Of a DNA stretch of 64,000 bases, positions 4,958 to 55,988 are shown piece by piece (position 1 is the stretch's first letter; every line of letters starts with the position of its first letter). The notes under the pieces are model-generated. The model was not told the origin of the DNA. It saw only the letters and a list, made by a program, of their open reading frames with translations, and searched no databases. The translations under genes were made by a program, and so were the position numbers. This DNA comes from a virus, in the IMG/VR virus record IMGVR_UViG_3300010396_000006, positions 1 through 64,000 of that record; one strand, given 5' to 3'.

Positions 4958-5309
4958 AGAACTGGTGTCGAAGATCATCTGTTGCATCCGTGCGGCTCGG
5001 CTTGATCTCTCGGATGAGAAAGCGACTCAACGCGATCTCGCCGAGATGTTCACTCAGGAACGGATTTTCTTCGCCCGTGAAGTTCGCCTATCCAGAGCAG
5101 ACATTATCGACTTCATGATTCAAGGCATCGGCATCGAAGTGAAGTTGCAAGGGGCCGTCAAAACGGCGGTCCATCGTCAATTGGTTCGGTACGCAAAACA
5201 CGACAACATCAAGTGTCTGATTCTGGTCTCGAATCTCAGCATGGGATTGCCACAACAGATCGAAGGGAAAGACGTCTATTTCGTCAGCGCGGCAGAGGGC
5301 TGGTTGTGA
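4941..5309 (+). CDS. Putative PD-(D/E)XK nuclease
   Basis: 122 residues. ATG at 4941 lies inside the end of the previous gene. Residues about 55-70 read DIIDFMIQGIGIEVKLQG: an Asp, a short strand pair, then E-x-K, the catalytic core of PD-(D/E)XK nucleases. A following helix with QLVRYAKHD and the strand CLILVS complete the fold. It overlaps the SNF2 helicase gene by four bases (GTGA), so nuclease and motor are probably made together and may act together in recombination or in attack on foreign DNA. The substrate is not predictable. Confidence 0.7.
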   Translation: MTDPIKELVSKIICCIRAARLDLSDEKATQRDLAEMFTQERIFFAREVRLSRADIIDFMIQGIGIEVKLQGAVKTAVHRQLVRYAKHDNIKCLILVSNLSMGLPQQIEGKDVYFVSAAEGWL

Positions 5310-6988
5310 GAACGTACGGCAAGATTCAACTTACTCCCGATGGAACGAAATGGGTGATCACCAAAGCGGAGCCGCACGTCTCGATCCGATTGAAAACCTT
5401 GTTCCCAAGTATTCCGAAAGGAAATGTCCCGCCATATTGGTTGCCTCACAGTCTGCCTGTTGATGCCGATCTCGATTGGTTCATGATCCGATATCCGCTG
5501 GAGATGTCAGAACAGGATCGAGCGGCACTAACCATCGGCCGCGAAAAGTACCTCGCACGCCAAGCCGAGATGGAACAGATCCTGATGCCGGATTACGTCC
5601 CCGCGAAGTCGGCAAAATTAAGGGAAGGCCAACAACTGAGGCCGTATCAATGGCAAGCAATCGAGATCCTGAAACGTCGCGGAAGCCTGTTGATCAGCGA
5701 CGAAATGGGACTCGGGAAAACTTACACGGCGGCAGGATTCATGGTCAGTCGGGCTGATTCGCTTCCCGCCGCCGTAGTCTGCGATGCTCACATGCAGCAA
5801 CAATGGAAAGAGAAGATCGAATCGTTCACGTACCTGAAAGTATGTCTGATCAAAAAGGCATCTGCCTATAGTTTGCCGGCGGCGGACGTCTACGTATTCC
5901 GAATCAGTCAGGTTGCCGGATGGTCAGAGATCTTCGATACCGGGTTTTTCCAATCGGTGACATACGATGAGCCTCAATCATTGAGGACGGGAACATCAAC
6001 CAGCAAAGGAACCGCCTGCAAGATTCTGTCCAAGAACACAAAGTATCGTTGCGGGCTGAGTGCTACGCCGGTTTTCAACTATGGCGATGAAATGTGGCGG
6101 ATTCTCCAATTCATCGACGATGCCGTTTTGGGATCATGGGATGATTTTGCGAGGGAATGGTGCTACCCAATGGGCAACGGAAAATTCCGCGTTGATAATC
6201 CAAAGGCCCTTGGGTCATACCTTCGCGAACAGCATGCGATGTTGAGGCGCACAAAAGCGGATATTGGTCAGCAATTGCCGAAAGTGTCCCGAATCGTCGA
6301 ACACGTTGACTATGACGAAAAGGCCGTTCAAGCCGTCGAGGATCTGGCTTGCATGCTGGCAGTCAAAGCGACTACAGCCAGTTTCGTTGAACGAGGGAAT
6401 GCCGTCAGGGAATTGGACGTCATGGTTAGGCAGGCAACGGGGATTTCCAAAGCGAAGACTGTTGCGACATTCAGCAGGATGATCGTCGAAGCCGGTGAAC
6501 CGATCATCCTATGGGGTTGGCATCGCGGGGTCTATGAAATCTGGAATCAAGAACTAGCCGATCTCAATCCCGCCATGTACACGGGAAGTGAATCAGCATC
6601 GCAGAAGCAAAAAGCGAAAGACAAATTTCTGAACGGTGAAACCGACGTATTGATCATGTCGCTGCGAAGCGGGGCCGGGGTTGATGGACTGCAAAAGCGA
6701 TGTTGTACTGGCATCTTCGGTGAATTGGATTGGTCCCCTGGGATTCATGCCCAATGCATCGGACGTCTCGATCGAGAAGGCCAAGAGAACCCCGTGACGG
6801 CATTCTTCCTTGTGGTCGATGATGGAAGCGATCCGCCGATCATGGATGTGTTGGGAATCAAAGCGTCAGAAGCATCCTCAATCATCGATCCGCATTTGGG
6901 CGTGGAGATGAAAGAGAACGACACCAGTCGATTGCAAAAGCTGGTTGAGCGATATTTAGATCGAAAGAAGTCAAAGTCGGTAGCGTGA
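5306..6988 (+). CDS. SNF2-family DNA helicase/translocase
   Basis: 560 residues. The GTG at 5306 overlaps the previous stop; the frame to 5213 is a shadow. Motif I is DEMGLGKTYTAAG (about residue 131). A Walker B variant YDEPQS lies near 220, motif III LSATPVFNYGDEMW near 250, LRSGAGVDGLQ near 455, and motif VI CIGRLDREGQ near 482. These are the SF2/SNF2 motifs in the normal order. SNF2 proteins move along duplex DNA using ATP; in phages they are often next to nuclease genes, as here. The C-terminus ends soon after the second RecA domain, with a Lys-rich tail. The next gene is separated by the structured RNA at 6994. Confidence 0.9.
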   Translation: MRTYGKIQLTPDGTKWVITKAEPHVSIRLKTLFPSIPKGNVPPYWLPHSLPVDADLDWFMIRYPLEMSEQDRAALTIGREKYLARQAEMEQILMPDYVPAKSAKLREGQQLRPYQWQAIEILKRRGSLLISDEMGLGKTYTAAGFMVSRADSLPAAVVCDAHMQQQWKEKIESFTYLKVCLIKKASAYSLPAADVYVFRISQVAGWSEIFDTGFFQSVTYDEPQSLRTGTSTSKGTACKILSKNTKYRCGLSATPVFNYGDEMWRILQFIDDAVLGSWDDFAREWCYPMGNGKFRVDNPKALGSYLREQHAMLRRTKADIGQQLPKVSRIVEHVDYDEKAVQAVEDLACMLAVKATTASFVERGNAVRELDVMVRQATGISKAKTVATFSRMIVEAGEPIILWGWHRGVYEIWNQELADLNPAMYTGSESASQKQKAKDKFLNGETDVLIMSLRSGAGVDGLQKRCCTGIFGELDWSPGIHAQCIGRLDREGQENPVTAFFLVVDDGSDPPIMDVLGIKASEASSIIDPHLGVEMKENDTSRLQKLVERYLDRKKSKSVA

Positions 6989-6993
6989 AAGGG

Positions 6994-7298
6994 AAAACCA
7001 TTTGATCAATCGGACATGATGAACGGTAGACCGTTTACTGACCGAAGACCGCAACGCCGTGGGATCGAAAGTGAAATCGGTAAAAAAGTATTCGGAAGGG
7101 GCGATTGGGACGGAGCGATATTCCGATGCCGGTACAGGTATGGTGTGCGTTGCGGTGAATGTCACACGTCAGCGACGAAGCCCAGCCGGCAGCGACCGGA
7201 GCCGCACACAACGGCTTTCATGGATAGCGGTGATGCATGCAATTGCGAATCCATGACGCAGGGCTGTCCTAGCTTTGTCCGATTGATCAAGTGGTTTT
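6994..7298 (+). ncRNA. Structured non-coding RNA closed by a 22-bp stem
   Basis: This 305-base stretch has no convincing gene. Bases 6994-7015 pair with 7277-7298 over 22 positions, with a single G.U pair as the only non-Watson-Crick pair. Inside, ACCGCAACGC (7048-7057) pairs perfectly with GCGTTGCGGT (7147-7156), TCGGAA (7092-7097) with TTCCGA (7121-7126), AACGG (7022-7026) with CCGTT (7031-7035), and TCATGGAT (7218-7225) with ATCCATGA (7249-7256). Nested long-range helices of this kind are typical of large structured RNAs. It does not show tmRNA or RNase P landmarks that I can recognise. Large phage RNAs such as GOLLD or ROOL are possible comparisons, not tested. It may be processed from the operon transcript or be made independently. 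Confidence 0.7.
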
Positions 7299-7326
7299 AG
7301 AAGCGAACTTTTAACAAGGTGCAATT

Positions 7327-8064
7327 ATGCTGGAACGAGTGACATTGACGGGCGCAGACAACACGGTCGAACCGAGCGAACTGCGAAAACTGAGCGAGGA
7401 TTTCCCGTTTGTCGAGTGGGGGATTCTGATCGGGACTCGCTTAAAGGCTCATCGAATGCCAGATGTTGATTGGATTCATCAACTGGTTGAAGAACGATTC
7501 CAAACGAACAACACAATGAATCTGTCGCTTCATATCTGCGGCCAACGATTGCGATCCATCGCGAATGGCCGACCTGATTTGAATGTGACAGTAGGCCATC
7601 AATTTATGGCGTTCTCTCGTGTGCAACTGAATTGGCATGCTGAACGATATGCGGCCGACGTCACTGAAAGCATGGCGGAAAACATTCTCACATCGTTCTG
7701 CCAAATGGGTGTGAGTGGATGGGAACCGGAATTGATCTTTCAGCTTGATGGGGTCAACGAAGATCTCTGCAAAGCCGTGATGCGTCGTTTTCGTTGTAGT
7801 GGATTATTTGATCGATCTCACGGTGCAGGCATTCTTCCCGGTGAATGGCCAAGATCACGGACCGATATGGCATGCGGTTGGGCCGGTGGCTTAGGTCCTG
7901 ACAATGTGGTCGAAGAGTTCCAGAAGATCCGTAAGCAGGCGTTCGGACCGTTCTGGATCGACATGGAAACCAAACTCTACAACGAAGACCGGACATTCAG
8001 CTTGGAAAAGTGCCGCAGTGTTCTGACTCAGATGAAACCATTCGTTGGATCGGACGCGGATTGA
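7327..8064 (+). CDS. TIM-barrel protein resembling phosphoribosylanthranilate isomerase
   Basis: 245 residues; start with AAGGTG eight bases upstream. Alternating strands and helices (VEWGILIG, LHICGQ, ELIFQLD, GILPGEWP) suggest an (alpha/beta)8 barrel. ACGWAGGLGPDNVVEEF near residue 190 matches the AGGLxPxNV phosphate-binding loop of TrpF-type isomerases, followed by FWIDMETKLY near 220. No trp genes are nearby, so a role in tryptophan synthesis is unlikely. It directly follows the structured RNA, and a nucleotide- or RNA-linked role is only a guess. One base overlap with the next gene. Confidence 0.65.
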   Translation: MLERVTLTGADNTVEPSELRKLSEDFPFVEWGILIGTRLKAHRMPDVDWIHQLVEERFQTNNTMNLSLHICGQRLRSIANGRPDLNVTVGHQFMAFSRVQLNWHAERYAADVTESMAENILTSFCQMGVSGWEPELIFQLDGVNEDLCKAVMRRFRCSGLFDRSHGAGILPGEWPRSRTDMACGWAGGLGPDNVVEEFQKIRKQAFGPFWIDMETKLYNEDRTFSLEKCRSVLTQMKPFVGSDAD

Positions 8065-15839: not shown

Positions 15840-16037
15840 GTGTTAGTTTTATCACGAAAAAAGGGTGAGACGGTGGAAATCGGAAAGGCCGGAGATGTTC
15901 TGACCGGTCCGATCATTGTGACAGTCGTGGAAGTTCGTGGTGACAAAACCAGAATCGGAATTCAGGCCGATCGAGATGTCCCAGTCCACCGCGGCGAAGT
16001 GGCAGAAGCGATCGCACGGGAGCAAGAAGGCAAATAG
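15840..16037 (+). CDS. csrA: Carbon storage regulator CsrA
   Basis: 65 residues with the classic start MLVLSRKKGETVEIG, the central IIVTVVEVRGDKTRIGIQA and the RDVPVHRGEV segment that holds the RNA-binding Arg. CsrA dimers bind ANGGA motifs near ribosome binding sites and usually block translation. The start is GTG. The leader contains AAGGAAGGAC, two overlapping GGA motifs on the ribosome binding site, so it may regulate itself. A phage copy could act on host messages or on the phage's own; the repeated ANGGA hairpins before the terminase operon (46155-46251) are possible targets. Confidence 0.95.
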   Translation: MLVLSRKKGETVEIGKAGDVLTGPIIVTVVEVRGDKTRIGIQADRDVPVHRGEVAEAIAREQEGK

Positions 16038-20030: not shown

Positions 20031-20055
20031 CAAATCATACAGATTTTCGTTAGAA
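20027..20055 (+). promoter_or_regulatory. Promoter with operator in the spacer
   Basis: TTGACA (20027-20032), 17 bases, TTAGAA (20050-20055). The palindrome AATCATACAGATT (20033-20045) fills the spacer, where a bound protein would block RNA polymerase. This supports a repressor rather than an activator. Confidence 0.65.
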
Positions 20056-20063
20056 GCGTTGTC

Positions 20064-20090
20064 GAATCGTGACACAGTAACACACGACTC
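20064..20090 (+). promoter_or_regulatory. CAGUAAC-loop leader hairpin 3
   Basis: GAATCGTG (20064-20071) pairs with CACGACTC (20083-20090), with one A.C mismatch. The 11-base loop is ACACAGTAACA. Its last three bases are shared with the next structure (20088-20230), so the two may compete. Confidence 0.65.
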
Positions 20091-20230
20091 GAAGTCTTTC
20101 GTTCCGCTCCGGTCCTGAGCGGGAGTTACTGCCTGTTAAGGATGGCATCCGTCAGCGTCTCTTAATTGCGCGCTGATGCATGTATTTTCTCACATCCATT
20201 CGGGGTCGGATCGGAACGAAGGACTTCGAG
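20088..20230 (+). ncRNA. Structured leader RNA of the helicase operon
   Basis: Bases 20088-20106 pair with 20212-20230 over 19 positions, with one U.G pair. Inside, CAGCG (20154-20158) pairs with CGCTG (20171-20175), and TGCC and GGCA form a short hairpin. The AAAGGGA ribosome binding site lies just after the closing stem, 13 bases before the ATG at 20244. The element could control translation of the helicase gene or be released as a small RNA. No known riboswitch class is recognised. Confidence 0.55.
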
Positions 20231-20243
20231 CAAAGGGAAATTG

Positions 20244-25607: not shown

Positions 25608-25613
25608 TCTTCG

Positions 25614-25677
25614 CTCGATCGGTCATGGAAATCCGAGAGCTTGTTGCTTGAGGATTCGAACTTCTTGGCCGATCGAG
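25614..25677 (+). repeat. Inverted repeat upstream of the large terminator
   Basis: CTCGATCGGTCA (25614-25625) pairs with TGGCCGATCGAG (25666-25677) over 12 positions with one U.G. It starts seven bases after the previous stop and, with the hairpin at 25689, folds nearly the whole gap. Confidence 0.5.
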
Positions 25678-25688
25678 TGATTATGATT

Positions 25689-25763
25689 GCCCGGTCTGTT
25701 GTGAAAATTACGAACCGCCAGACGGTCGGGATTTTGAACCGCACAACGGGCCGGGCATTTTTA
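25689..25763 (+). terminator. Large factor-independent terminator
   Basis: Bases 25689-25703 pair with 25742-25756 (15 positions, two U.G). Inside are AAAAT/ATTTT and ACCG/CGGT helices with a CCAGA loop. ATTTTTA follows directly. It ends the operon that starts at 20244. Confidence 0.7.
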
Positions 25764-25810
25764 TAATCAGGAAACTGACTGATTACCGACTTTGAGGATT
25801 GAGGGTAATT

Positions 25811-35207: not shown

Positions 35208-35248
35208 AACTCGCCCGTGAACGGATTCCACTCCCTCACGGGCGAGTT
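35208..35248 (+). promoter_or_regulatory. Strong hairpin in front of the tail-fibre start codon
   Basis: AACTCGCCCGTGA (35208-35220) pairs perfectly with TCACGGGCGAGTT (35236-35248). The ATG is five bases later and no U-tract follows, so it is not a normal terminator. It covers the place where a ribosome binding site should be. Confidence 0.6.
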
Positions 35249-51465: not shown

Positions 51466-51559
51466 CCGATTGTTGGGCAATCGGACTTGATAGACGCGGC
51501 TTGTCTGTGTCGGCCTGTCGTAATACTGCCCAACGGTATTGCGACAGGCTTTTTCTTTT
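51466..51559 (+). ncRNA. Leader RNA with complementary hairpin loops
   Basis: Hairpin 1 is CCGATTG-TTGGG-CAATCGG (51466-51484), a perfect seven-pair stem. Hairpin 2 is the terminator at 51513-51549, loop CCCAA. The two five-base loops are exact complements, so they can form a kissing complex. The product could be a short regulatory RNA or an attenuator for the next gene. Confidence 0.6.
51513..51559 (+). terminator. Strong terminator before the 51577 gene
   Basis: Bases 51513-51528 pair with 51534-51549 over 16 positions (two U.G), followed by TTTTTCTTTT. The AAAGGG site for the next gene comes after it, so read-through is needed for that gene. Confidence 0.85.
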
Positions 51560-55925: not shown

Positions 55926-55968
55926 AGGCTGAGTTGACTATTTTGTTGACTCAGCCTCTTTCGTTTTC
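55926..55968 (+). terminator. Factor-independent terminator
   Basis: AGGCTGAGT (55926-55934) pairs perfectly with ACTCAGCCT (55949-55957), followed by CTTTCGTTTTC. It separates groES from the portal gene, so part of the transcription must read through or start anew. Confidence 0.65.
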
Positions 55969-55988
55969 AGGCAAGGATGTCACAAATC

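What the first reader, a model, noticed from the sequence alone, without database searches (positions are those of the whole stretch)
6994..7298. Large structured RNA between the SNF2 helicase and TrpF-like genes
A 22-position closing stem and four more perfect internal helices in a 305-base gap without a gene. This is far beyond chance and fits an unassigned large phage RNA.
Basis: partly seen in the sequence, partly recalled or inferred. Interest (0 to 1): 0.75.

Follow-up and report, generated by a model that had tools for sequence, protein, structure and literature searches.

The report
Long-stem element between two phage genes
A gap between two phage genes carries a genuine 23-base-pair inverted repeat that would fold its RNA into a closed loop, but the inside of the loop folds no better than random sequence and no relative has it, so it is more likely a phage mRNA processing stem than a large ornate RNA.

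Summary
The closing stem is real. Arms 6994-7016 and 7276-7298 pair at 22 Watson-Crick positions plus one G-U, longer than any inverted repeat in 200 shuffles of the 105,647-base virus record (maximum 21). It fills the gap between a SNF2 helicase (stop 6988) and a TrpF-like gene (ATG 7327). The rest of the claim is weaker. The 259-base interior folds no better than shuffles (z -0.64) and has as many helices of 6 bp or more as chance (5 against 5.8); only one 10-bp helix is unusual, and it is not in the lowest-energy fold. There is no Rfam match at E up to 10, no coding signal and no DNA relative. The closest SNF2 relative (63%) overlaps its next gene. No covariation test is possible, so a large functional RNA is unproven. 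A second, more stable element of the same design lies at 20088-20230 (24-nt arms, z -8.9), downstream of a promoter-like phage motif. Best reading: transcribed intercistronic stems, probably RNase III-type processing sites that separate messages and may release a loop RNA; cleavage and transcription are inferred. A DNA-level inverted-repeat function is not excluded.

The parts
6994..7016 (+). Left (5') arm of the closing stem of element A
   Evidence: most pairs predicted at probability 0.97-1.0
7276..7298 (+). Right (3') arm of the closing stem of element A
7017..7275 (+). 259-nt interior (loop) of element A; local hairpins only, no excess of structure
   Evidence: z -0.64
7218..7256 (+). Most persistent local hairpin of the interior (TCATGGAT...ATCCATGA)
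   Evidence: in MFE and centroid; 8-bp perfect helix
7048..7156 (+). 10-bp perfect internal helix (arms 7048-7057 and 7147-7156), not in the + strand MFE
5213..6988 (+). SNF2-family helicase gene; stop codon 5 nt before the stem
   Evidence: PF00176, E 3.3e-21; phrog_62
7327..8064 (+).
20088..20230 (+). Element B: second long closing stem (arms 20088-20111 / 20207-20230), 143 nt, in the probable 5' leader of the second SNF2-type helicase gene (likely ATG near 20241)
   Evidence: z -8.90
20032..20046 (+). Palindromic AAATCnnnnnGATTT motif, one of the phage's promoter-like sites, upstream of element B
   Evidence: 8 exact in the record, 0.1 expected

Best explanation
Element A is a transcribed intercistronic stem in a same-strand gene cluster of an uncultured phage. 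When the message is read through from the SNF2 gene into the TrpF-like gene, the two 23-nt arms pair into a roughly two-turn RNA duplex that starts 5 nt after the SNF2 stop and ends 28 nt before the next ATG. The most likely job is RNA processing: such a duplex is a natural RNase III substrate, so cutting it would separate the upstream and downstream messages (setting their ends and stability) and release the 259-nt loop as a by-product or small RNA. Shown: the stem, its position, its rarity, the absence of a coding signal. Inferred: transcription, cleavage and any role for the loop. Element B (20088-20230) looks like a second case.
For: Stem longer than in any of 200 shuffled records, and its pairs predicted at probability near 1. 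Whole element z -4.79 but interior z -0.64, so the stem is the feature and the loop looks passive. It sits precisely between the stop and start codons of co-oriented genes. No terminator-like or sigma-70-like promoter site in the gap, so read-through transcription is plausible. A second, stronger element of the same design in the same record. Repeats of 22 or more with loops over 50 nt were seen only three times in about 2.6 Mb of related phage loci, against two in this 106 kb.
Against: No transcript data; no homologue, hence no compensatory changes. The nearest SNF2 and TrpF-like relatives lack such an element, so it is not a conserved part of either gene's surroundings. An inverted repeat is equally present in DNA, and the - strand folds almost as well. 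RNase III cleavage is inferred from general knowledge, not tested.
Confidence: 0.42

Rival explanations
1. A stand-alone structured phage non-coding RNA of a new family: the stem holds a folded 259-nt core that acts in trans.
For: Gap without coding signal, strong closing stem, no Rfam family; one 10-bp internal helix reached in only 1.3% of shuffles.
Against: Interior folds like shuffled sequence; competing folds of near-equal energy (-121.2 and -120.1); MFE frequency 0.0007; no relatives found.
Confidence: 0.2
2. A DNA-level inverted repeat: a pair of operators or another protein-binding or cruciform site, with no RNA function. Each arm holds the palindrome TTGATCAA, as a dimeric regulator site would.
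For: Arms near-identical, interior unstructured; TTGATCAA in both arms.
Against: The arm is not repeated elsewhere in the window beyond chance (6 sites with up to 3 mismatches, 4.4 expected); the phage's recognisable operator-like motif is a different one.
Confidence: 0.2
3. A non-autonomous inserted element (MITE-like) with 23-bp terminal inverted repeats, which would explain its absence from relatives.
For: Terminal-repeat geometry, and absence of the segment beside the SNF2 and TrpF-like genes of relatives.
Against: Single copy in the record; no match with these arms at this spacing in viral contigs or 84,980 bacterial and archaeal genomes (exact 11-base arms only); no target-site duplication visible at the ends.
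Confidence: 0.1
4. An invertible DNA switch: the 259-bp segment flips between the arms and changes expression of the downstream gene.
For: Arm length and spacing resemble known invertible promoters (general knowledge).
Against: No tyrosine or serine recombinase in the 105.6-kb record (the record may be incomplete and a host enzyme could serve); no promoter-like site in the segment.
Confidence: 0.05
5. A small protein gene: the 94-aa ORF 7016-7300.
For: Open from the end of the left arm to the end of the right arm.
Against: Codon score -0.003, below every ORF taken as a gene; GC at codon position 2 (0.56) is higher than at position 1 (0.50), unlike the phage's genes; no homologue.
Confidence: 0.03

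Closest known systems
RNase III processing stems between phage T7 genes, and the long processing stalks that flank bacterial rRNAs
   Same: Long duplex in the untranslated part of a co-transcribed unit; the rRNA stalks also close a large loop (general knowledge).
   Different: T7 sites are local hairpins, here the loop is 259 nt; transcription and cleavage are untested here.
GOLLD and ROOL, large ornate phage RNAs (PMC12286853)
   Same: Phage-encoded, without coding signal, long helix present.
   Different: No Rfam match; 305 nt against more than 800 nt for many GOLLD; not near a tRNA island (the only tRNA found in the window is 21 kb away); interior not more structured than chance.
Miniature inverted-repeat elements (MITEs)
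   Same: Short segment without coding signal, with terminal inverted repeats.
   Different: Single copy, no target-site duplication, no copies found.
Invertible promoters of the fimS / Bacteroides type
   Same: About 300-bp segment flanked by inverted repeats next to a gene.
   Different: Neither recombinase family in the record and no promoter-like site inside.

Membership tests
GOLLD / ROOL / any Rfam family | Match to the family covariance model | tested here: not met
   Searches (gathering; E up to 10, region 6900-7400): no match
GOLLD / ROOL-like large structured RNA | Elaborate, conserved secondary structure supported by covariation | tested here: inconclusive
   interior z -0.64; no homologues for covariation
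RNase III intercistronic processing site | RNA duplex of about 20 bp or more between genes | tested here: met
   23 pairs, 22 WC + 1 GU, in the gap 6989-7326; the duplex is a prediction
RNase III intercistronic processing site | Transcribed across both arms and cleaved in the stem | not testable with these tools
   no RNA data; co-orientation of genes only
Intrinsic terminator | Short GC-rich hairpin followed by a U run | tested here: not met
   none in the gap
MITE / mobile element | Terminal inverted repeats | tested here: met
MITE / mobile element | Further copies and target-site duplication | tested here: not met
   (collections by exact arm pattern only)
Retron non-coding RNA | Adjacent reverse transcriptase gene | tested here: not met
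   PF00078 absent from the record
TnpB/IscB guide (omega/HEARO-type) RNA | Adjacent TnpB-like gene or Rfam match | tested here: not met
   PF07282 absent from the record; no Rfam match
CsrB/RsmZ-type sponge RNA (the phage encodes CsrA) | Many GGA motifs in hairpin loops | tested here: not met
   7 GGA, 7.4 expected, mostly paired
Invertible DNA switch | Site-specific recombinase in the record | tested here: not met
   PF00589 and PF00239 absent; a host enzyme cannot be excluded

The most novel reading that the evidence does not exclude
Elements A and B are two cases of an undescribed design in this phage: long RNase III-type closing stems that excise stable loop RNAs next to its two SNF2-type helicase genes, with the excised loops acting as phage regulatory RNAs.
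Probability: 0.12. Interest if true: 0.6.

Novelty: new member of a known kind. Interest (0 to 1): 0.3.

Why it matters
If transcribed and cleaved, it would show processing stems organising gene clusters in a phage known only from sequence, and would give a ready probe for an excised phage RNA. As it stands it is a solid inverted repeat with an unproven function, and it shows that a long closing stem by itself does not make a large structured RNA.

Tried and rejected
Rfam at gathering and permissive thresholds: nothing. blastn to phages: nothing; to plasmids: only a 37-base match at E 0.3. blastn of the element in 38 related records: only matches of 14-24 bases. The arm as a 15-mer in viral contigs: 36 hits, one per stretch, none with a partner. 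Both arms with spacing in viral and genome collections: none. Protein from the ORF: rejected. A common family for elements A and B: a short shared run (GATGCATG...ATCCAT) was noticed, but the alignment score is at chance (83 of 200 shuffles as good), so dropped. CsrA sponge: dropped. Retron and TnpB guide RNA: dropped. TrpF-like relatives in bacterial genomes: none found. No covariance model was built because only one sequence exists. My own sliding-fold ranking put several other intergenic stretches above this one, which helped to find element B.

Full report
Context. The window is 64 kb of a 105,647-base virus record.

The observation. In 200 dinucleotide shuffles of the whole record the longest inverted repeat within about 600 bases reached 21, never 23. 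The stem is therefore not chance.

The interior is different. Folded alone, 7017-7275 has z -0.64 on the + strand and -0.34 on the - strand. It holds five perfect helices of 6 bp or more, 5.8 being expected; only a 10-bp helix is unusual (1.3% of shuffles), and it is not in the minimum-energy fold; forcing it costs 1.1 kcal/mol. The whole element's z of -4.79 comes from the closing stem. So the statement that four internal helices are far beyond chance is not confirmed.

Coding. The 94-aa ORF 7016-7300 has a codon score of -0.003, lower than any ORF accepted as a gene in the window (minimum 0.010), and GC at position 2 exceeds position 1. It has no family and no tblastn match. The gap is treated as non-coding.

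Known RNA families. No Rfam match in the window, and none at E up to 10 for 6900-7400. GOLLD and ROOL are phage-encoded and often near tRNA islands, and many GOLLD exceed 800 nt (PMC12286853); here the element is 305 nt, the only tRNA found in the window is 21 kb away, and the interior is not more structured than chance.

Relatives. There is no DNA relative in phages, only a 37-base match at E 0.3 in plasmids, and only short matches in 38 related virus records and in all loci held. Relatives of the flanking genes do exist: SNF2 at 63% identity (L201) and TrpF-like at 53% (L005). In L201 the next ORF overlaps the SNF2 stop; in L004 the next ORF starts 7 bases after it; in L005 the gap before the TrpF-like gene is short. 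The element is thus specific to this phage as far as the collections show, and covariation cannot be tested. Patterns with both arms at this spacing gave no hit in viral contigs or in 84,980 bacterial and archaeal genomes, which speaks against a widespread mobile element, though only exact 11-base arms were tested.

A second element. Sliding folds and a repeat scan of the record single out one more such structure: 20088-20230, arms of 24 (22 paired), z -8.90. It lies between the gene for a DNA polymerase processivity factor and a second SNF2-type helicase gene, about 40 nt downstream of one of eight exact palindromic AAATCnnnnnGATTT sites (0.1 expected), several of which are followed by a TTGACA-like hexamer. 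So it is probably in a 5' leader. Elements A and B do not share sequence beyond chance. In about 2.6 Mb of related loci, repeats of 22 or more with loops over 50 nt appeared three times, so two in one record is notable. That comparison is rough, because the loci overlap in part.

Mechanism. The most economical reading is that the arms matter and the loop does not: a two-turn RNA duplex between two co-transcribed genes, as in known RNase III processing sites (general knowledge). Transcription and cleavage are inferred. Rivals that remain open are a trans-acting RNA, a DNA-level operator pair (each arm contains the palindrome TTGATCAA), a MITE-like insertion and an invertible switch. The last is weakened by the absence of tyrosine and serine recombinases from the record. 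A retron or TnpB guide RNA is not supported, nor a CsrA sponge despite a phage CsrA gene.

Verdict. A real, unusual inverted repeat with a probably ordinary function; the label 'large structured RNA' is not earned by the present evidence.

Noticed in passing
20088-20230: A second, more stable long-closing-stem element (24-nt arms, z -8.9) in the probable 5' leader of the second SNF2-type helicase gene.
   Followed up: partly
13602, 20032, 42903, 51434, 63488 in the window; 66699, 75248, 101159 in the full record: Palindromic motif AAATCnnnnnGATTT occurs 8 times exactly (0.1 expected), several times followed by a TTGACA-like hexamer and a GATA-like box: probably a phage regulon of promoters with operators.
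   Followed up: partly
15840-16037: Phage-encoded CsrA (PF02599, E 1.1e-17).
   Followed up: partly
25608-25798: Another strongly folding intergenic gap with two long hairpins.
   Followed up: no
35208-35248, 51513-51549 and about 55930-55975: GC-rich hairpins between genes; the last two are followed by T-rich runs and look like intrinsic terminators.
   Followed up: no
L166:9691-9848 and L166:13441-13536: A related phage record (G016) has two elements with 19-nt inverted-repeat arms, one of them between divergent genes with ribosome-binding sites inside the arms.
   Followed up: partly
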